This document shows, one piece after another, positions 26,787 through 34,568 of a stretch of 64,000 nt of DNA. A program made the translations under genes and the position numbers. The stretch's first letter is position 1; every line of letters starts with the position of its first letter. Source of the stretch: Cephaloticoccus sp. GTDB lineage: Bacteria; Verrucomicrobiota; Verrucomicrobiia; Opitutales; Opitutaceae. The stretch spans positions 62,001 to 126,000 of the forward strand of contig JAURHD010000006.1 of assembly GCA_030833445.1 (NCBI GenBank), read 5' to 3'. The notes under the pieces were generated by a model, which saw only the letters and a list, made by a program, of their open reading frames with translations, was not told where the DNA came from and made no database searches.

Positions 26787-28895
26787 ATGACGTCATTGCC
26801 TAAACCCCGTGGGCTGCGCCCCGTTTTCTACGCTTGGTTGATTGGATTGAGCCTGTTGTTGGCCGGAACGGCCCGGGCTGAGTTCACCGGAAGCGATTGG
26901 GCCGGTAAGTGGGTCCTTATCCCGGAGCAGAGCAGTGCCTTGGATGTGTTTGATACGGTGTCGCTGGAATTTCAGTCGGTCTCGACGGATCACGTAGTTA
27001 TCAACGAAAAGTGGGGTTCGCGACGGTCGCATGCCGAGTTGTTGGATTTGCAACTGGGCGGCGCGGTCAACGCCGTGCCGATCGAGCACAAGGTTTTTGC
27101 GAGTAATGTCTTCATGGGGGTGCGCCGCGAGGTCGGGGCGAATCGGGCGATCGTGGCGAAATGGGCCAAGCCCTTTGCTGAGCTCGAACTACAGGAGACG
27201 CTGCCGATCGTTTCGTCGCAGGGGCATCGCACCCTGAGCTATCGCACCACACTGTCACTCAATGCCGACGGCACCATCTTGACTTGGCGGGTGCAGCGGC
27301 CGACGCGGCCTGCCGATGAACCGCAGGTATATCGACTCAAACGCGAGGGATATCGCGATGCGTTTTACATGACCATGAGCGACAACTGGGGTATCGACCA
27401 AGACCTGCCGGAGCAGGCCGCGCTGATCACGTTGCAAGGCGTGGTGAACCAGCAGGGCCCGCAGTTATATTTCGTTTATGGACCGGAGTGGGACTTCCGT
27501 TTCACCGGGCAGATCAAGGATTACTACCAGGCCAAGAAGGCGTTTTCGTTCAAGGAGCTGAAGACGTTCCGGCAGGCGCTGACCACCTTCAAAGATCAGG
27601 TGCACCGCTACATCGTCTGGGACAAGGAGGTGCGCACGTCGTTGATTGTGGCGTTCACGGTGGCCGGATTGGAAAAGGCGATTGTAGTGCCGGCTGACCT
27701 GATCCCGTTGATGGAAGAATTCGGGCTCAAGCAGGTCGCGGATTTTCGCGGCAAGTTTACCGGGATGAGTGACGTGGAAATTTACCGCTGGGCCCACGAC
27801 CAGTATTGGGAACGCTGCAGCAAAGACGCCATCGTGTGGATGGGTGGGGATGCGGGCAGCCGGATGCGGCCGGGCGTCGCCGACTTCGGCATGATGCAAC
27901 GTTGTTTCTTCACCGACCTTTCGACTGACGCGAACAACCCGAAGTGGGCGGAGGAATATAAACTGGCGGACAAGCTGCTCGGCGAGATGAACCCGATGGC
28001 GATGTGCTTCGGCTGGCACTCCTATGCGAAGGACAAGGAACGTGATCATGTGAAGTTGGCCTCCTCACATTTGGTGCGGGTGTCCGGCCTGCACACGTTG
28101 CCCAACACGAGTTTCAACTCACAGGTTCCACTGACCCCTGGCTTCACCTTCCGCAATCACCCCAACGTGAAGGAGGGCGAAACCCACACTCCGGAAAAGA
28201 AGGTTTACATCGCGGCGGTGCAGACGGACTCGCTTGGCATCGGTGCGTGGACCCGGCCGGGGCGGGGCACGATTCCCTACGCGTGGCAGGTCTCGATGAA
28301 CTGGCTGTGGATGTCGCCCTCGGTGCTAGAGATGTTCTATGATCAGGCCACGCCGAACGACTTGTTCATCGCGGGGCTTTCGGGTCCGGGTTACATGTAT
28401 GCCAAGGCGATTCCGCCGGCCGGCCTGCCGCAGGTAATTGCAAAGTCACGCGAGTTCATGTCGAAGCTCGATCTGCATATTTTCGAGTTCATGGATTACT
28501 CCGAGGGCGCCTCGATCGAGGGAAATCCCGATCTGCCGCAATCGTTGATCAACACGTATTTCAAGGAGATGCCCGAGGTGATCGGTTTCCTTAATGGTTA
28601 TGCCCCCGCCTATACTTTTGTGCATCAGGATGGCCGCGTGCTGGTGTCTTACGATTACTACATGTCGGAAGGGCGTTCGGAACGCGAGGTGGTTGCCGAT
28701 CTGCGCGAACTCGCCGCGATCAATGACAAGCGGCCATACTTCCTGTTGATGCATGTGCGCCAGTGGAGCGATATCACGCGGGTGAAAGCCGTGCTCGACG
28801 AGCTCGGGTCGGCATTCGAGGTCGTGCCGTTGGATGTGTTTTTGAAGATGGCCGCTACCGATCCGACGTTCGAGACCTATACGCGGCCGGAATAA
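26787..28895 (+). CDS. Exported GxGYxYP protein fused to an N-terminal beta domain
   Basis: 702 residues with a signal peptide (core FYAWLIGLSLLLAG). Residues ~33-190 form a beta-rich lipocalin-like domain starting WAGKWVLIPEQSS. Residues ~195-702 are the GxGYxYP domain, a putative glycoside-hydrolase-like family; its name motif reads GPGYMYA (533-539), with the final Pro changed. The same two modules occur on the opposite strand 80 bases away as separate genes (28975-30606 and 30621-31136). The fused and split copies face each other, as after an inverted duplication followed by fusion or fission. Confidence 0.83.
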   Translation: MTSLPKPRGLRPVFYAWLIGLSLLLAGTARAEFTGSDWAGKWVLIPEQSSALDVFDTVSLEFQSVSTDHVVINEKWGSRRSHAELLDLQLGGAVNAVPIEHKVFASNVFMGVRREVGANRAIVAKWAKPFAELELQETLPIVSSQGHRTLSYRTTLSLNADGTILTWRVQRPTRPADEPQVYRLKREGYRDAFYMTMSDNWGIDQDLPEQAALITLQGVVNQQGPQLYFVYGPEWDFRFTGQIKDYYQAKKAFSFKELKTFRQALTTFKDQVHRYIVWDKEVRTSLIVAFTVAGLEKAIVVPADLIPLMEEFGLKQVADFRGKFTGMSDVEIYRWAHDQYWERCSKDAIVWMGGDAGSRMRPGVADFGMMQRCFFTDLSTDANNPKWAEEYKLADKLLGEMNPMAMCFGWHSYAKDKERDHVKLASSHLVRVSGLHTLPNTSFNSQVPLTPGFTFRNHPNVKEGETHTPEKKVYIAAVQTDSLGIGAWTRPGRGTIPYAWQVSMNWLWMSPSVLEMFYDQATPNDLFIAGLSGPGYMYAKAIPPAGLPQVIAKSREFMSKLDLHIFEFMDYSEGASIEGNPDLPQSLINTYFKEMPEVIGFLNGYAPAYTFVHQDGRVLVSYDYYMSEGRSEREVVADLRELAAINDKRPYFLLMHVRQWSDITRVKAVLDELGSAFEVVPLDVFLKMAATDPTFETYTRPE

Positions 28896-28974: not shown

Positions 28975-30606
28975 TCAATACGGATTGTGCACAACGGGGT
29001 CACCGGGCTGCTGGTAGCGCGTGCGGAATGTCGGGGCTTGGCCGGCGATGGAGAGGAAGACATCGATCGGCACGATTTCGTTTTCCTCTTTCAAGCTGCC
29101 CAGGATTGCCGCCACGCGTTCTATGCTGGATGACTCGCGCACGTGGATGAGCAGGTAGTAGGGACGTTTGGGATTTAGCGCGATGAGCTCTTCCAGATCG
29201 GCGACGATTTCTTCATCCGGATGATTCGCGCTCAGATAATATTCGTAAGACAGCAAGGCGCGCCCATCGCGATGGGCGTAGGTGCGGGCGGCGCCGTAGC
29301 TATTGGTGAAGCCGAGGATTTCCGGGTAACCCTGGAAGATCAGATCAACGACTTCCTTGGTGAGATCGGTGCTGCCGACGTGACGGTTGCCCTCCGAATA
29401 ATCCATGATGTCCATCACGCGCAGATCGAGATCCCGGTTAAGCCGGCGGACCACGGCTTGGAGGGCCGGGTAGTGTTTCGCCGGCACTGCCTTTGGGTAG
29501 AGATAGCTCGGAAACGCGAAGGAGTTGAAGTGGTCGTTCGGCGTGGCACCCTGATAAAAATACTCCAGCACACCCGGGGCGAAATCCACCCAACTCATGG
29601 GGAGGCCCCAGGTGTAGGGCAGTTTGCCGCGACCCGGCTTGGTCCATGCGCCGATCCCGATGCTGTCGGTCTGGGCGAGGGCGATGTAGACTTTCGCTTC
29701 CGGCTTGGGTGGATTGGCCGGATCGACACTGTGGTGGTTTTTAAAGGTGAAGCCCTTGCTGAACGGGATCTGCGCATTGAAGCTTAGATTTGGCAGGGTG
29801 TTGAGTCCCTCCATGCGCAGACCGTGACTGGAGGTCAGTGCGACCTGCTGCCCCTCGGTGTCCTTGGCGTAGGAATGCCAGCCCATCACGAACGCATTGG
29901 GGTTGAGCTCGGTGTAAATCTTGTTCGCGAGAGCGAGTTCTGCGGGGTGGCGTGGGTTGTTCGAAAGATCGGTGAAGAAGGCGCGCTGACGCACGCCCCA
30001 GTCCGCCATGCCGGGTTCGAGAATGGTGCCATGATGACCGCCGAGCCAGAGCACGACGTCGCGGCTGCATCGATTCCAGTAACGGTCCATGGCGATGGCG
30101 TAGATTTGGGCGTCATCCATGCCGGTGAAGTCCCCACGCAAGTCGGTGATTTGGGTGAGGCCGTGCTTTTCTGCGAGTGGGATCAGGTCTGCCGAAACGA
30201 CCACGGCATCTTCCAAACCTGCCACCGTGAAGGCGACGATGAGTGATGTGCGCACATCCTTATCCCAGACGACGTAGCCCTTGGCGTGATTGCCGAGTGC
30301 CGCCAAGGCCGCGTCGGGTGTCGCCAAATTGGTAAAGGTGATGCCATGTTTCTGTTCATAGAAGGCCCGGACCGGCTTGGTGATCTGCCATGGCCATTTG
30401 GCACCGTATTCAAGGTAAAGCCTCGGCTGATCCCGGTTGGCGAGGCCCTGCAGACTGATGATGAGGGCATGCTCCGGAAGATTGCCTTGGATCGTCCAGT
30501 CGTCCGACATCTGCATGACATAGGCTTGGGCCGGCACATCTGCCCGTAGCAATGGGGTCGTGACGAGGATGAAAGCGAACGTAAGGAGGGAAAGGCGGAA
30601 TTTCAT
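28975..30606 (-). CDS. Exported GxGYxYP-domain protein, stand-alone copy
   Basis: 543 residues from the ATG at 30606. Signal peptide MKFRLSLLTFAFILVTTPLL. It aligns along its length with the C-terminal ~510 residues of the convergent fused gene: shared MSD(N/D)W start, VWDK(E/D)VRTSLIVAFTVAGLE, MGWHSYAKD-like and GIGAWT(R/K)PGRG. The name motif reads FPSYLYP (365-371), so both glycines are lost. The module that is N-terminal in the fused copy is encoded by the gene 14 bases upstream. Confidence 0.83.
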   Translation of the reverse strand: MKFRLSLLTFAFILVTTPLLRADVPAQAYVMQMSDDWTIQGNLPEHALIISLQGLANRDQPRLYLEYGAKWPWQITKPVRAFYEQKHGITFTNLATPDAALAALGNHAKGYVVWDKDVRTSLIVAFTVAGLEDAVVVSADLIPLAEKHGLTQITDLRGDFTGMDDAQIYAIAMDRYWNRCSRDVVLWLGGHHGTILEPGMADWGVRQRAFFTDLSNNPRHPAELALANKIYTELNPNAFVMGWHSYAKDTEGQQVALTSSHGLRMEGLNTLPNLSFNAQIPFSKGFTFKNHHSVDPANPPKPEAKVYIALAQTDSIGIGAWTKPGRGKLPYTWGLPMSWVDFAPGVLEYFYQGATPNDHFNSFAFPSYLYPKAVPAKHYPALQAVVRRLNRDLDLRVMDIMDYSEGNRHVGSTDLTKEVVDLIFQGYPEILGFTNSYGAARTYAHRDGRALLSYEYYLSANHPDEEIVADLEELIALNPKRPYYLLIHVRESSSIERVAAILGSLKEENEIVPIDVFLSIAGQAPTFRTRYQQPGDPVVHNPY

Positions 30607-30620
30607 GCAGACTACTGAGT

Positions 30621-31136
30621 TCAGATTTTCTGATAAACGTGGACGACCGGCCGCTTGCGACTGGAGCGGTGCTGCACTTCGCGGAGAGTTTGACCGTCGT
30701 CGGACACTTGCAGCGTGCGTGTCACCTTGACGGGGATTTCGCCCTGTTGAGTTTCCAGCACCATATTGATGCTGAGCCGCAAGGAGTGTCCTGCATTGAG
30801 CCATTCGGGAGTGACCTCGATGCGGTTGTCGTGCGCGAGCCAGGCATCAATGTGCCGATTGTCCCACCACCCCTCGACGGTCGCGGTTTGGGCCTTGGGC
30901 TGATTGGCCAGATCCAGTGTTTCTTGGGCTACGCGTGTGCCCGCGGAATAATGACGGACGACCGCTAGTCGGTCATCTGTCACGGATATATCCATGGTGA
31001 GGTCGCTCCACGGGTCGAGCGAAGTGCTTTGTGTGGTATCAAGTTTCCATTGGCCGTTGTAGGCCGGATTGGCGGCAGCGGTGAGTGGAAGCGCACCGAT
31101 GCACAGGCAGAGGAGGAAGCGGGGGAGTAAGTTCAT
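30621..31136 (-). CDS. Exported beta-domain protein, stand-alone N-module of the GxGYxYP pair
   Basis: 171 residues with a signal peptide (MNLLPRFLLCLCIGALPL, cleaved near TAAANP). The mature part starts YNGQWKLDTTQSTSLDPW and resembles residues ~33-190 of the fused protein at 26787-28895 (WAGKWVLIPEQSSALDVF). No known domain name is assigned. It lies 14 bases upstream of the stand-alone GxGYxYP gene and is probably co-translated with it. The two probably form a secreted complex equivalent to the fused protein. Confidence 0.75.
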   Translation of the reverse strand: MNLLPRFLLCLCIGALPLTAAANPAYNGQWKLDTTQSTSLDPWSDLTMDISVTDDRLAVVRHYSAGTRVAQETLDLANQPKAQTATVEGWWDNRHIDAWLAHDNRIEVTPEWLNAGHSLRLSINMVLETQQGEIPVKVTRTLQVSDDGQTLREVQHRSSRKRPVVHVYQKI

Positions 31137-31247: not shown

Positions 31248-32261
31248 ATGGCACGACGCTGGCAAACGATGTCCCAAGAGCGATTGCTCGATCTGCGACT
31301 CTGCGACCTCGATCTGCACATCGAGGGTTCGATCATGGAGGAGCGCACGGAGCGCCTTGATGAGGAACTGGCGGCCAAAGGCCTGCGGTTTCGTCCACAC
31401 TACTGGGTGGGTGCCGAATGGTTTACGCCGGACGGGGTGCCCGGAGTAGCGATCCCTTTCGCCTTGGTGCATCCGCGGCTAACCCGACTGGAGGCCGAAG
31501 TGATGTTGGATGTCGAGGGCTACGCCACGCCTGAGTGCATGAAGATTCTGCGGCATGAGGCCGGACATGCGATCGACAACGCCTATCGCCTGCACCGCCG
31601 CAAGCGTTGGCGTGAACTGTTCGGATCCTACACCGACCCGTATCCCGATTCCTATCGTCCCCGGCCCAACAGCCGCCGTTTCGTGCAACATCTGACCGGT
31701 TGGTATGCCCAGGCCCATCCGGCGGAGGATTTCGCCGAGACCTTTGCGGTGTGGATGACCCCGGGTTACCCGTGGCGCAAGCGCTACGCCGACTGGCCCG
31801 CCCTCGAGAAACTCGAATACGTGGATGAGTTGATGAAGGAGATCGCTGACCAAGTGCCGCCGGTGCGTTCGCGCCGACATGTCGAACCGTTGAGTGAACT
31901 GAAGATCAAGCTACGGGACCACTATGCCCAGAAGCGCGAGGCCTATTCGATCGAGTGGCCCGCTTACTACGATCGCGACCTGCGCCGCATCTTTAAGGAA
32001 AACCCACCCAACCAGCAACGCATGTCGGCGGCGGCATTTTTACGCACCTGGCGGGCGGAGTTGAGTCGCACGGTCGGTGAAAATTCAGGCGTGCCCGTTT
32101 ACACGGTGGACCATTTACTCAAGACCATGATCGAACGCTCCCGCGACCTAAAGCTGCGTTTGCGCGACTCGCCCCGCCGCACGCGGGAGAACATGCTGCT
32201 CATGCTGATGATGCATACAATGCACGTCGCCCACGCCGGATACCCAAGGATCGCCGTATGA
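31248..32261 (+). CDS. Predicted zinc metallopeptidase (HExxH)
   Basis: 337 residues, no signal peptide. HEAGHAID at 103-110 gives two zinc histidines and the catalytic glutamate; the glutamate in HPAEDFAETFA (E164) is the likely third ligand. This resembles the putative zinc-binding metallopeptidases often beside ATP-grasp genes. The C-terminal half is Arg-rich with helices. Its stop overlaps the start of the ATP-grasp gene by four bases (ATGA). A cytoplasmic peptide-processing role is inferred. Confidence 0.78.
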   Translation: MARRWQTMSQERLLDLRLCDLDLHIEGSIMEERTERLDEELAAKGLRFRPHYWVGAEWFTPDGVPGVAIPFALVHPRLTRLEAEVMLDVEGYATPECMKILRHEAGHAIDNAYRLHRRKRWRELFGSYTDPYPDSYRPRPNSRRFVQHLTGWYAQAHPAEDFAETFAVWMTPGYPWRKRYADWPALEKLEYVDELMKEIADQVPPVRSRRHVEPLSELKIKLRDHYAQKREAYSIEWPAYYDRDLRRIFKENPPNQQRMSAAAFLRTWRAELSRTVGENSGVPVYTVDHLLKTMIERSRDLKLRLRDSPRRTRENMLLMLMMHTMHVAHAGYPRIAV

Positions 32262-33286
32262 AACTTCTGCAACGCAAACTTAACATCATCACCCTCATGC
32301 ACTCCGATCTGGTGCCACCAGAGTCGATCGAGGGGTTGAAGGAGAAGGATATCCAACCTTGGAAGATGGAATACGATGTGCAGGCGACCCTGCAAAACAT
32401 GGGGCACCACGTGCATCCGGTCGGTATCTACAGTGACCTGGGTATTGTGACCGACGCGTTGGACCGCGTGAAGCCCGACATCGTATTCAACATGCTGGAG
32501 GAGTTCGATGGACAGGTGCTATTTGACCAGCATGTCGTGTCATTTCTGGAATTGAAGCGAGCGCGCTACACCGGGTGCAATCCGCGTGGGCTGACCCTCG
32601 CGCACGACAAGGCACTTTCGAAAAAGATCCTCGCCTACCACCGTATCCCGGTTCCGGCCTTCGCGGTATTCCCGCCCGGCCGGAAGGTGAAGCGTCCGCC
32701 CAAACTCGCGTTTCCCTTGTTGGTAAAATCCCTGATTGATGAAGGTTCGGTCGGGATCTCCCGCGCCTCGGTGGTGAGTGATGATGTGGCGATGATGGAG
32801 CGGGTGGAACTGATTCACCGCCAGACGAACAACCCCGCCATTGCGGAACAATACATCCCCGGACGCGAAATCTATGTGAGCGTGGTCGGCAACGAGCGAC
32901 TGCAGACTTCCAATCCATGGGAGCTGGTGCTGGAACATTTGCCCGAGGGCGCACCCAATATCGCGACCAGTCGTTTGAAGTGGGATTACGCGCATCAGAC
33001 GAAAATGGGCATGACCACGCGCCCGGCTGAACTCGATCCGGATCAGCGGAGAAATCTCGATCAGCTATCCAAGCGCATCTATCGAGCACTGCACCTCAGC
33101 GGCTATGCGCGGTTGGATTTTCGCATGTCGACGGAAGGTCGGTTCTATCTGTTGGAGGCGAACCCGAATCCCTGCCTTTCTTTGGGCGAGGACTTTGCCG
33201 AGGCGATGGAAAGCGCCGGCATGGGTTACGCTGCCTTGCTCGATCGCATCCTGCGACTCGGGCTGAGCTATCGTGGGGTGGCGTAA
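32258..33286 (+). CDS. ATP-grasp ligase, D-alanine-D-alanine ligase-like
   Basis: 342 residues. N-terminal Rossmann-like region (LNIITLMHSDLVP), then ATP-grasp domains with LLVKSLIDEGSVGISRASVV, IAEQYIPGREIYVSV and the metal site LLEANPNPCLSLG. Long for a true Ddl active site; the N-terminus lacks the usual HG(R/K)xGE dipeptide-ligase loop. It joins amino acids or peptides in most relatives. Overlapped by four bases with the metallopeptidase and followed 33 bases later by an HxD protein. A peptide-tailoring ligase is more likely than a cell-wall Ddl. Confidence 0.82.
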   Translation: MKLLQRKLNIITLMHSDLVPPESIEGLKEKDIQPWKMEYDVQATLQNMGHHVHPVGIYSDLGIVTDALDRVKPDIVFNMLEEFDGQVLFDQHVVSFLELKRARYTGCNPRGLTLAHDKALSKKILAYHRIPVPAFAVFPPGRKVKRPPKLAFPLLVKSLIDEGSVGISRASVVSDDVAMMERVELIHRQTNNPAIAEQYIPGREIYVSVVGNERLQTSNPWELVLEHLPEGAPNIATSRLKWDYAHQTKMGMTTRPAELDPDQRRNLDQLSKRIYRALHLSGYARLDFRMSTEGRFYLLEANPNPCLSLGEDFAEAMESAGMGYAALLDRILRLGLSYRGVA

Positions 33287-33311
33287 GCTTTAAGCGAAAA
33301 GCTGAAAGCTT
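33285..33311. repeat. AAGCTT-type inverted repeat after the ATP-grasp gene
   Basis: Arms AAGCTTT (33285-33291) and AAAGCTT (33305-33311) flank 13 bases, overlapping the TAA stop. The same word family recurs at 49012-49087. May act as a weak terminator or a mobile short repeat. Confidence 0.5.
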
Positions 33312-33319
33312 CCAAATTC

Positions 33320-34039
33320 ATGCGTGCTGATACGTCAGATGATTCCTTGGTCGGTTATCCGCGAATCAAGATGGTGGGGAGTTTTGAAGAGCTGATCGGC
33401 ACGCCGTTTCGCGACGGCGTCAATGCGCTCTGTTGGCGACGGGAGTTGCCGGGGGATTTTGCCGCGGTGGTGCGGGCGGTGGGAGCACTCGATGAAATCA
33501 CCACCATTGATGATGAATCGCTACGTGCGCTCGATCTCAGTGCAGCAGGTCGGGTGGCGCGGGATATCCTGTTGGAGGATCAACGGCTCCTGCAGGCACA
33601 TGGGCTCTCCCCGATCCTCGATTGTATTCCAGCCTACCCGCGTGATGTATCCGATGAACCGGTGCCGACGGATGTGTATTCGTTTCACGTTGATAGCGCC
33701 ACGACCGAGACGGACACCTGGCTTTGCACCTATCATGGTGCTTCGTCTGAAGGTCTGAGTAACGAAGCAGCGATCAGGCGGGTGGATGTGCCCGCGACGC
33801 GAGCGGCCTTGCTCAAAGCCTACGGAGGTCAGGATGACGCCGACTTCCGGATCTATTTAGCCGAGCACTGCTACGATCTGCATTATGTGCCCCAGTCAAA
33901 TGCTCAACTCTTTGCCTTTGGGGTCGGGAACCTGTGGCGGATTGCCACGGCGTGGCCGGGTTGTCTCGTGCCGCCCTGTATTCATCGCGCCCCGGCGACC
34001 CGGCAGGGACATCCGCCGCGCTTACTGTTGATCAGTTGA
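33320..34039 (+). CDS. Unrecognised protein with HxD and late HR motifs (possible DUF1826-like)
   Basis: 239 residues, no signal peptide. I do not recognise it securely. FHVDS contains a H-x-D pair and CIHRAPATRQ near the end offers a distal histidine and arginine. That spacing is like cupin-fold Fe(II)/2-oxoglutarate enzymes and the uncharacterised DUF1826 family. It follows the metallopeptidase and ATP-grasp genes on the same strand after 33 bases, so it may be the third part of one system. The lipocalin gene is convergent 5 bases downstream. Confidence 0.55.
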   Translation: MRADTSDDSLVGYPRIKMVGSFEELIGTPFRDGVNALCWRRELPGDFAAVVRAVGALDEITTIDDESLRALDLSAAGRVARDILLEDQRLLQAHGLSPILDCIPAYPRDVSDEPVPTDVYSFHVDSATTETDTWLCTYHGASSEGLSNEAAIRRVDVPATRAALLKAYGGQDDADFRIYLAEHCYDLHYVPQSNAQLFAFGVGNLWRIATAWPGCLVPPCIHRAPATRQGHPPRLLLIS

Positions 34040-34043
34040 TCAC

Positions 34044-34568
34044 TCAGCCGGTCGGTTGGGGCACTTTCGCGATTCTTGCTGGATCGTAGCCTTGGCCCCG
34101 GATGCGCTCCAGGATGCTTTGATAGGTTTCGTCGGGGAGCTGACGTTCGCGGGCGAGAACCCATAGAAGTTTGCGTCCCGGGGTGGCGACCACCGCCCAA
34201 CGATAATCCGGGTCTAACTCCAGCACCAGATAGGTTGAGGTGATCGGCCAGATGAACTGCACTTTCCACTCGGCGTTGGTCTCGCGATTCACGACTTCGG
34301 CCGTGCCGTGCCAAGTCTTCTCCGGGGCTTCGAAGCTCCCTTTGCGGAAGGTAAAGTCGTTGCCCAATTTACCATCCGGCCGGCGCGTGTAGGTGTCGTA
34401 GCTGGCGACCTTTCCGTTTTCGAGGAAGTAAGGGATGTTTGCGATGACATACCAGCGACCGAGGTAACGCTCGAGATCGACATGATCCACCGTGCGGAGT
34501 GGCGGCTTATCTGACGTCGTGGCGCAGCCAATCAGCAGGAGCGGTAGCAGGTAAGGCAGTAAACGCAT
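34044..34568 (-). CDS. blc: Outer-membrane lipocalin lipoprotein
   Basis: 174 residues. Lipoprotein signal with lipobox LLIGC (C15). The bacterial lipocalin motif YLGRWYV (35-41) follows, with YTRRPDGKLGND and the late Trp-rich YRWAVVATPGRKLLWVLAR. Blc binds lysophospholipids and fatty acids in the periplasm. Length is normal. A broken GDSL hydrolase lies just upstream on the same strand, perhaps once an esterase partner. Confidence 0.9.
   Translation of the reverse strand: MRLLPYLLPLLLIGCATTSDKPPLRTVDHVDLERYLGRWYVIANIPYFLENGKVASYDTYTRRPDGKLGNDFTFRKGSFEAPEKTWHGTAEVVNRETNAEWKVQFIWPITSTYLVLELDPDYRWAVVATPGRKLLWVLARERQLPDETYQSILERIRGQGYDPARIAKVPQPTG

What the first reader, a model, noticed from the sequence alone, without database searches (positions are those of the whole stretch)
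31248..34039. Coupled metallopeptidase / ATP-grasp ligase / HxD-protein set, possible peptide-tailoring system
Seen: a cytoplasmic HEAGH metallopeptidase overlaps an ATP-grasp ligase by ATGA, and an unrecognised HxD...HR protein follows 33 bases later. Known: ATP-grasp ligases of this type join peptides in tailoring systems, sometimes beside peptidases. Inferred: ligate, oxidise, then cleave. The ligase lacks a clear Ddl dipeptide loop.
Basis: partly seen in the sequence, partly recalled or inferred. Interest (0 to 1): 0.72.

Follow-up and report, generated by a model that had tools for sequence, protein, structure and literature searches.

The report
Paired zinc-peptidase and peptide-ligase genes
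Two overlapping genes, a probable zinc peptidase inside the cell and an ATP-driven ligase that makes peptide-like bonds, are kept together in distantly related bacteria and probably act as a make-and-cut pair on a still unknown substrate; the third gene named in the finding is only a neighbour.

Summary
In detail: a HEAGH metallopeptidase gene (MP, 31248-32261) overlaps a Ddl-like ATP-grasp gene (ATPG, 32258-33286) by ATGA, and a third gene follows after 33 bases. The third is DUF1826.

The three-gene reading fails. DUF1826 lies beside the pair in 1 of 41 related loci. Its homologue is found in 16 of 33 other genomes tested: 12 lack the pair, and in 4 it lies far from it.

The two-gene core is strong. 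MP lies beside ATPG in 38 of 41 loci from several phyla. In 672 sampled genomes, 64 of 65 with a close MP have ATPG next to it; the other MP ends at a contig edge. No other gene is widely conserved there. Linkage is weaker for distant MPs, and some genomes keep the ligase alone.

ATPG is not the cell-wall Ddl. MP is a PF15887 zincin. Best reading: a ligase/peptidase module acting on one substrate, with RimK-RimB-like logic from different enzyme families. The substrate and the reaction are untested.

The parts
31248..32261 (+). MP: zinc metallopeptidase-like protein, 337 aa, PF15887 Peptidase_Mx core plus a C-terminal part of unknown fold
   Evidence: PF15887 33.9 bits against cut-off 27; H103, E104, H107, H157, E160, D161, E164 in 34 of 34 aligned rows and kept in 7 more distant MPs
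31554..31568 (+). HEAGH zinc motif of MP (residues 103-107)
31716..31739 (+). HPAEDFAE of MP (residues 157-164), which holds the likely third zinc ligand
   Evidence: H157, E160, D161, E164 in 34 of 34 rows; the ligand role is inferred
32258..32261 (+). ATGA overlap: start of ATPG inside the stop of MP
   Evidence: a 4-base overlap also in 23 of 39 loci and 54 of 85 distinct pairs (where the script prefers that start if present)
32258..33286 (+). ATPG: Ddl-like ATP-grasp ligase outside the Ddl clade, 342 aa
   Evidence: PF07478 95.1 bits against 24; TIGR01205 104.4 against 245.65; model pLDDT 90.6, best Z 32.5 to P. aeruginosa DdlB, rmsd 2.6 over 300 residues; tree
32978..32983 (+). Lys241-Trp242, in the place of the Ddl loop Lys-Tyr
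   Evidence: alignment with Ddl of the same genomes; 34 of 34 rows
33155..33172 (+). EANPNP (residues 300-305): Mg/ATP-side motif with NPNP in place of the N-T/S-x-PG of Ddl
   Evidence: E300, N302, P305 in 34 of 34 rows; comparison
33320..34039 (+). DUF1826 gene: a neighbour, judged not part of the module
   Evidence: PF08856 25.7 bits against 22; beside the pair in 1 of 41 loci; unlinked in 4 of 4 other tested genomes that hold both

Best explanation
MP and ATPG are a two-enzyme module. ATPG uses ATP to turn a carboxylate into an acyl phosphate and joins it to an amine, making an amide (peptide or isopeptide) bond. MP is a cytosolic zinc peptidase that cuts a bond in the same substrate, most likely trimming or reversing what the ligase made. 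That is the logic of the RimK ligase and RimB protease. Inferred from family membership, conserved residues and predicted fold: the ATP-grasp chemistry and the zinc-peptidase chemistry. Shown by comparison: the two genes belong together, and the ligase is not Ddl. Inferred only: that both act on one substrate, and that MP acts after ATPG. Unknown: the substrate.
For: MP is beside ATPG in 38 of 41 loci from Verrucomicrobiota, Acidobacteria, Planctomycetes, Krumholzibacteriota and Gammaproteobacteria, plus one MP fragment at a contig end (L019). In 672 sampled genomes (288 of the window's phylum, 199 Planctomycetes, 185 of the gammaproteobacterial class) 65 have a close MP (E <= 1e-100) and 64 of these have ATPG next to it; the other (G533) stops at a contig end. 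A second, distant subfamily has the two genes tail to tail instead, in 5 of 7 genomes of the window's phylum and in G444, so the link does not rest on one inherited operon. No other neighbour family in more than 5 of 41 loci or 2 of 40. Protein distances of the two correlate (r 0.80, 32 loci, 0 of 2000 permutations). Catalytic residues of both kept in 34 of 34 rows. Separate Ddl in 20 of 20 tested genomes. For the order: 6 of 70 sampled genomes with a close ATPG have no MP beside it, as do the genomes of L008 and L009, whereas no close MP clearly lacks the ligase. So MP seems to depend on ATPG more than the reverse. Precedent: RimB removes glutamates that RimK adds and stimulates RimK (PMC11957791, abstract; PMC12239564, passages).
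Against: No activity, substrate or complex is shown. Of 17 sampled genomes with a distant MP (E between 1e-100 and 1e-56), 10 have no ATPG beside it and in G445 it is about 3 kb away, so the wider MP family also works without this partner. The distance correlation may simply reflect shared species history. Two of the six ligase-only genomes (G495, G430) lie 926 and 773 bases from a contig end, though most of an adjacent MP should still have shown; G303, G380 and G430 hold a distant MP elsewhere. Foldseek found no significant fold match for MP (best E 0.15). RimK and RimB are different families, so that comparison is only functional.
Confidence: 0.42

Rival explanations
1. Small-molecule version: ATPG makes a dipeptide-like metabolite (for example a compatible solute) and MP hydrolyses it when it is no longer needed.
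For: ATPG has the fold of dipeptide-making Ddl (Z 32.5). Relatives of ATPG occur as tandem pairs beside a GNAT acetyltransferase and a lysine-2,3-aminomutase-like protein (L103-L106; Pfam hits for L103 and L105), a setting that suggests modified amino-acid products. No other enzyme is needed at the locus.
Against: The catalytic part of MP resembles endopeptidases that cut peptides and proteins (PPEP and lethal-factor fold, Z about 7 to 10). The tandem relatives are separate branches in the tree and have no MP beside them in the five clusters read (L102-L106).
Confidence: 0.25
2. Cut first, join second: MP cleaves a cellular protein or peptide and ATPG then modifies or cyclises the freed piece, as proposed for some ATP-grasp/peptidase loci without precursor genes.
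For: No conserved short ORF lies next to the pair. A published survey proposes this order for two ATP-grasp branches that are linked to peptidases and have no detectable precursor (PMC8939145, passages). The MP gene comes first in the operon form.
Against: Eight genomes keep the ligase without an adjacent MP, which is harder to explain if MP makes the ligase's substrate. The RimK hit of ATPG is below the Pfam cut-off, so it is not close to the RiPP-type ligases.
Confidence: 0.2
3. Cell-wall role: ATPG is a second Ddl-type enzyme for peptidoglycan precursors and MP a murein-peptide hydrolase.
For: Ddl-like fold and PF07478 membership.
Against: Below the NCBIfam Ddl cut-offs shown, outside the Ddl clade, loop Tyr replaced by Trp and the first Ser of the GSS motif by Gly or Ala. 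The 20 tested genomes have another, better Ddl. No cell-wall gene family recurs beside the pair.
Confidence: 0.08
4. One reading: ligate, oxidise with the HxD protein, then cleave.
For: Gene order in the window and in L003 only.
Against: DUF1826 not beside the pair in 40 of 41 loci, and in 16 other genomes unlinked from it or present without it. DUF1826 has been drawn in Zur-regulated COG0523 gene clusters instead (PMC2770081, one figure-legend passage).
Confidence: 0.02

Closest known systems
RimK-RimB (rim operon of Pseudomonas)
   Same: An ATP-grasp ligase and a protease encoded together in the cytosol; the protease removes what the ligase adds (PMC11957791 abstract; PMC12239564 passages).
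   Different: The ligase here is Ddl-like, not RimK (PF08443 14.6 bits against 21); the peptidase is a zincin, not a retropepsin; no MP-ATPG fusion was found among the loci scanned, whereas a RimB-RimK hybrid is reported.
[quoted passage not shown]
   Same: Fold and ATP-binding residues.
   Different: Outside the Ddl clade, Lys-Trp for Lys-Tyr, below the curated cut-offs, and the genomes have their own Ddl.
Graspetide-type loci with peptidases and no precursor (branches 7 and 8 of PMC8939145)
   Same: ATP-grasp genes linked to peptidase genes without a detectable precursor (passages).
   Different: Those peptidases are of several families and other genes occur; here one peptidase family and one ligase family, alone. 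Kinship to those ligases was not tested directly.
Anbu operon
   Same: A peptidase-like protein and an ATP-grasp protein in one operon (PMC6376114, abstract and passages).
   Different: It also has alphaE and transglutaminase-like genes and an Ntn-hydrolase; no such neighbours recur here.
PPEP / lethal-factor-like zincins
   Same: Predicted fold of MP residues 5-202: Z 8.2 to PPEP-3 (rmsd 3.9, 133 residues) and 10.1 to the catalytic part of lethal factor (rmsd 4.8, 155 residues).
   Different: About 14% identity, no sequence match to them in the PDB, no visible signal peptide, an extra C-terminal part.

Membership tests
Peptidase_Mx (PF15887) | Score over the Pfam gathering cut-off | tested here: met
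   33.9 bits against 27, over residues 101-170 only
Peptidase_Mx (PF15887) | HExxH zinc site | tested here: met
   H103, E104, H107 in 34 of 34 rows and in 7 distant MPs
PPEP / M34-type zincins | Shared catalytic-domain fold | tested here: inconclusive
   Best Z 10.1 and 8.2, but no significant Foldseek hit (best E 0.15)
Ddl | Score over the curated cut-off (TIGR01205) | tested here: not met
   104.4 bits against 245.65; all 25 families shown of 43 are below their cut-offs
Ddl | Clusters with Ddl in a tree | tested here: not met
   18 Ddl rows and 62 other rows are split with SH-aLRT 100 (quick tree)
Ddl | Lys-Tyr of the substrate loop and Ser of the GSS motif (roles recalled) | tested here: not met
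   Lys-Trp in 34 of 34; Gly 23 and Ala 11 of 34 in place of the first Ser
Ddl | D-Ala-D-Ala ligase activity | not testable with these tools
   needs an assay
RimK | PF08443 cut-off | tested here: not met
   14.6 bits against 21
RimK-RimB system | Retropepsin-like protease partner | tested here: not met
   The partner matches PF15887, a zincin family
Graspetide (RiPP) locus | Conserved precursor peptide next to the ligase | tested here: not met
   799 short ORFs within 1 kb of 37 pairs; no family in more than 3 loci. A precursor elsewhere is not excluded
Graspetide (RiPP) locus | Ligase belongs to the graspetide ligase families | tested here: inconclusive
   No such family among the 25 of 43 NCBIfam hits shown; no direct comparison was made
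Anbu operon | Anbu, alphaE and transglutaminase-like genes | tested here: not met
   No third recurrent neighbour family; MP is not an Ntn-hydrolase by Pfam
Known anti-phage defence proteins (PADLOC) | Match to a PADLOC model | tested here: not met
   0 families for 3 of 3 proteins at E <= 0.1
Three-gene peptide-tailoring system of the finding | Third gene conserved beside the pair | tested here: not met
   1 of 41 loci; unlinked in 4 of 4 other pair genomes with a homologue
DUF1826 (PF08856) | Pfam cut-off, third protein | tested here: met
   25.7 bits against 22; the genome-wide family search did not recover it in G000

The most novel reading that the evidence does not exclude
A dedicated reversible conjugation system: a non-Ddl member of the Ddl fold (Lys-Trp loop) writes an amino acid or peptide onto a cellular protein, and a lethal-factor/PPEP-fold zincin working inside the bacterium erases or trims it. 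It would be a third, independent design of the ligase/protease switch beside RimK-RimB.
Probability: 0.2. Interest if true: 0.78.

Novelty: new variant of a known kind. Interest (0 to 1): 0.5.

Why it matters
Ligase/protease pairs that add and remove amino acids are few, and where studied they control ribosomes or polymer pools (RimK-RimB, PMC11957791 abstract). Here two other enzyme families have been kept together, often translationally overlapped, in several phyla, with no other recurrent partner at the locus. That makes the question small and testable: two purified proteins and one pair of deletions could reveal the bond that is made and cut. It also warns that Ddl-type annotation of this ligase family would be misleading.

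Tried and rejected
True Ddl for the ligase: rejected. Third gene as part: rejected. A first whole-genome test with the DUF1826 family found it in 2 of 34 genomes but missed the window's own copy, so it was repeated with the window protein. Precursor peptide: none adjacent. MP-ATPG fusion: none in the loci scanned. Mobile or defence role: no MP match in the plasmid or phage collections, no PADLOC (E <= 0.1) or PHROGs (E <= 0.01) match for the three proteins. A promoter scan found none and no terminator-like site between ATPG and DUF1826; a hairpin there is not exceptional (19 of 200 shuffles fold as well). MP against PDB sequences: two chance-level hits only.

Fold: the listed matches of MP cover residues 5-202, so the C-terminal part was not really tested. 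The residue mapping onto Ddl is by sequence alignment; the model coordinates were not inspected.

Rows left out: alignment A1 has 34 of 42 ATPGs and A2 34 of 40 MPs (near-duplicates and truncated ones dropped). The tree has 18 of the 20 Ddl loci (two fell below the script's length filter or were duplicates). The 'tandem' group is a label for all other relatives, not all of them tandem. Neighbour lists use a simple longest-ORF caller that sometimes picks an antisense frame. The output was cut; L107-L110 were re-read.

Literature: ten searches listed no paper on this pair, but only their listings and the passages named were seen, in an open-access library. Iyer et al. 2009, the most likely place for an earlier mention, is not held, so earlier description is not excluded.

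Full report
What is there. The three ORFs and the spacing are as reported. The first is a Peptidase_Mx zincin (PF15887), the second a PF07478 (Ddl C-terminus) ATP-grasp protein and the third DUF1826. The set is a transcription-sized block between a divergent gene upstream (30621-31136, -) and a convergent lipocalin-like gene downstream (34044-34568, -).

The pair is real. A scan of one genome per species with the ligase gave 41 related loci (the tool's pattern search finds close relatives only). MP is encoded just upstream in 38, as a fragment at a contig end in L019, and not in L008 and L009, whose genomes hold no MP at E <= 1e-10. The overlap is exactly 4 bases in 23 of 39 loci and in 54 of 85 distinct pairs in a wider set (the script chose that start when present). 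The loci come from Verrucomicrobiota, Acidobacteria, Planctomycetes, Krumholzibacteriota and Gammaproteobacteria. Greedy ORF clustering found no other neighbour family in more than 5 of 41 loci or in more than 2 of 40 further loci.

Whole-genome test. In 288 genomes of the window's phylum a close MP (E <= 1e-100) is in 15, each with ATPG beside it; one more genome (G056) has only a close ATPG (E <= 1e-90). In 199 Planctomycetes 39 have a close MP, each with ATPG beside it (in G482 ATPG is split over two matches); five more (G303, G362, G380, G430, G495) have ATPG without adjacent MP. In 185 genomes of the gammaproteobacterial class 11 have MP; ATPG is beside it in 10 and the eleventh ends at a contig edge. 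Together 64 of 65, and 6 of 70 ligase genomes without an adjacent MP. Presence is patchy: two genomes of the window's own genus have neither gene.

A second arrangement. In 5 of the 7 genomes of the phylum with a more distant MP (E about 1e-90), the ligase relative lies tail to tail with it (L060-L064); the planctomycete G444 shows the same (L185). This is independent support that the two functions go together. Against it: for 10 of 17 genomes with distant MPs no ligase lies beside them, and in G445 it is about 3 kb away.

The ligase. Its model (pLDDT 90.6) has the Ddl fold (best Z 32.5, rmsd 2.6, 300 residues). The ATP-grasp residues K118, K157, E197, R285, D287, E300 and N302 are kept in 34 of 34 rows (their catalytic roles are recalled from Ddl). 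But it is far under the Ddl cut-offs, falls outside the clade of 18 Ddl rows with support 100, has Lys-Trp for the Lys-Tyr of the Ddl loop and Gly or Ala for the first Ser of GSS. Each of 20 genomes tested has another match to the Ddl model that is better than ATPG, over the cut-off in 17 and slightly below it in 3. So it makes an amide bond, but most likely not D-Ala-D-Ala. Relatives occur in tandem beside a GNAT acetyltransferase and a lysine-2,3-aminomutase-like protein, which suggests amino-acid-like substrates in the wider family without fixing the substrate here.

The peptidase. HExxH and the H157-E164 motif are invariant in 34 of 34 rows, and these residues remain in seven distant MPs. 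The model (pLDDT 88.8, pTM 0.75) gives no significant Foldseek match (best E 0.15). A second look aligns residues 5-202 to the lethal-factor/PPEP zincin fold (Z 10.1 and 8.2). This is a statement on fold only.

The third gene. DUF1826 is beside the pair only in L003 among 41 loci. With the window's own protein as query, 17 of 34 genomes have a homologue: the window's own, 12 without the pair, and 4 with the pair (G091, G271, G122, G274), where it lies from about 0.1 to over 5 Mb away in contig coordinates. Hence it is a common gene of the family that happens to sit here.

How it may work. ATPG activates a carboxylate with ATP and joins it to an amine; MP hydrolyses a bond of the same substrate. 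That ligase-only genomes exist but no clear MP-only genome among the close MPs suggests that MP acts on what ATPG makes; this is a weak inference from few cases. The best-studied parallel is RimK-RimB, in which the protease removes the glutamates that the ligase adds and stimulates the ligase (PMC11957791 abstract). Small-metabolite and cut-first versions remain open.

Novelty. No paper on this pair appeared in ten searches of an open-access library; a key 2009 survey of ATP-grasp gene neighbourhoods is not held. I rate it a new variant of a known kind, the ligase/protease pair.

Noticed in passing
L103-L106: Four-gene cluster of two tandem Ddl-like ATP-grasp ligases, a GNAT acetyltransferase and a lysine-2,3-aminomutase-like radical SAM protein in other genomes of the phylum (Pfam-checked in L103 and L105); L102 has the tandem ligases and GNAT without the aminomutase beside them.
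   Followed up: partly
26787-28895 (+) and 28975-30804 (-): Two convergent GxGYxYP glycoside-hydrolase-like genes of similar sequence upstream of the pair (the second checked with Pfam; the first recognised by eye).
   Followed up: no
33285-33311: Short hairpin (AAGCTTT...AAAGCTT) between ATPG and DUF1826; not exceptional against shuffles.
   Followed up: partly
L030: The record is titled a Klebsiella pneumoniae MAG, but its ligase groups with those of other gammaproteobacterial MAGs; the title may be wrong.
   Followed up: no
L066-L067 (G274:C1:208339-208877): A second, partial MP-like stretch spread over two matches, about 5 kb from the intact pair in G274.
   Followed up: no
G116 and G207: Two genomes of the window's own genus lack both genes, so the pair is gained or lost over short times.
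   Followed up: no
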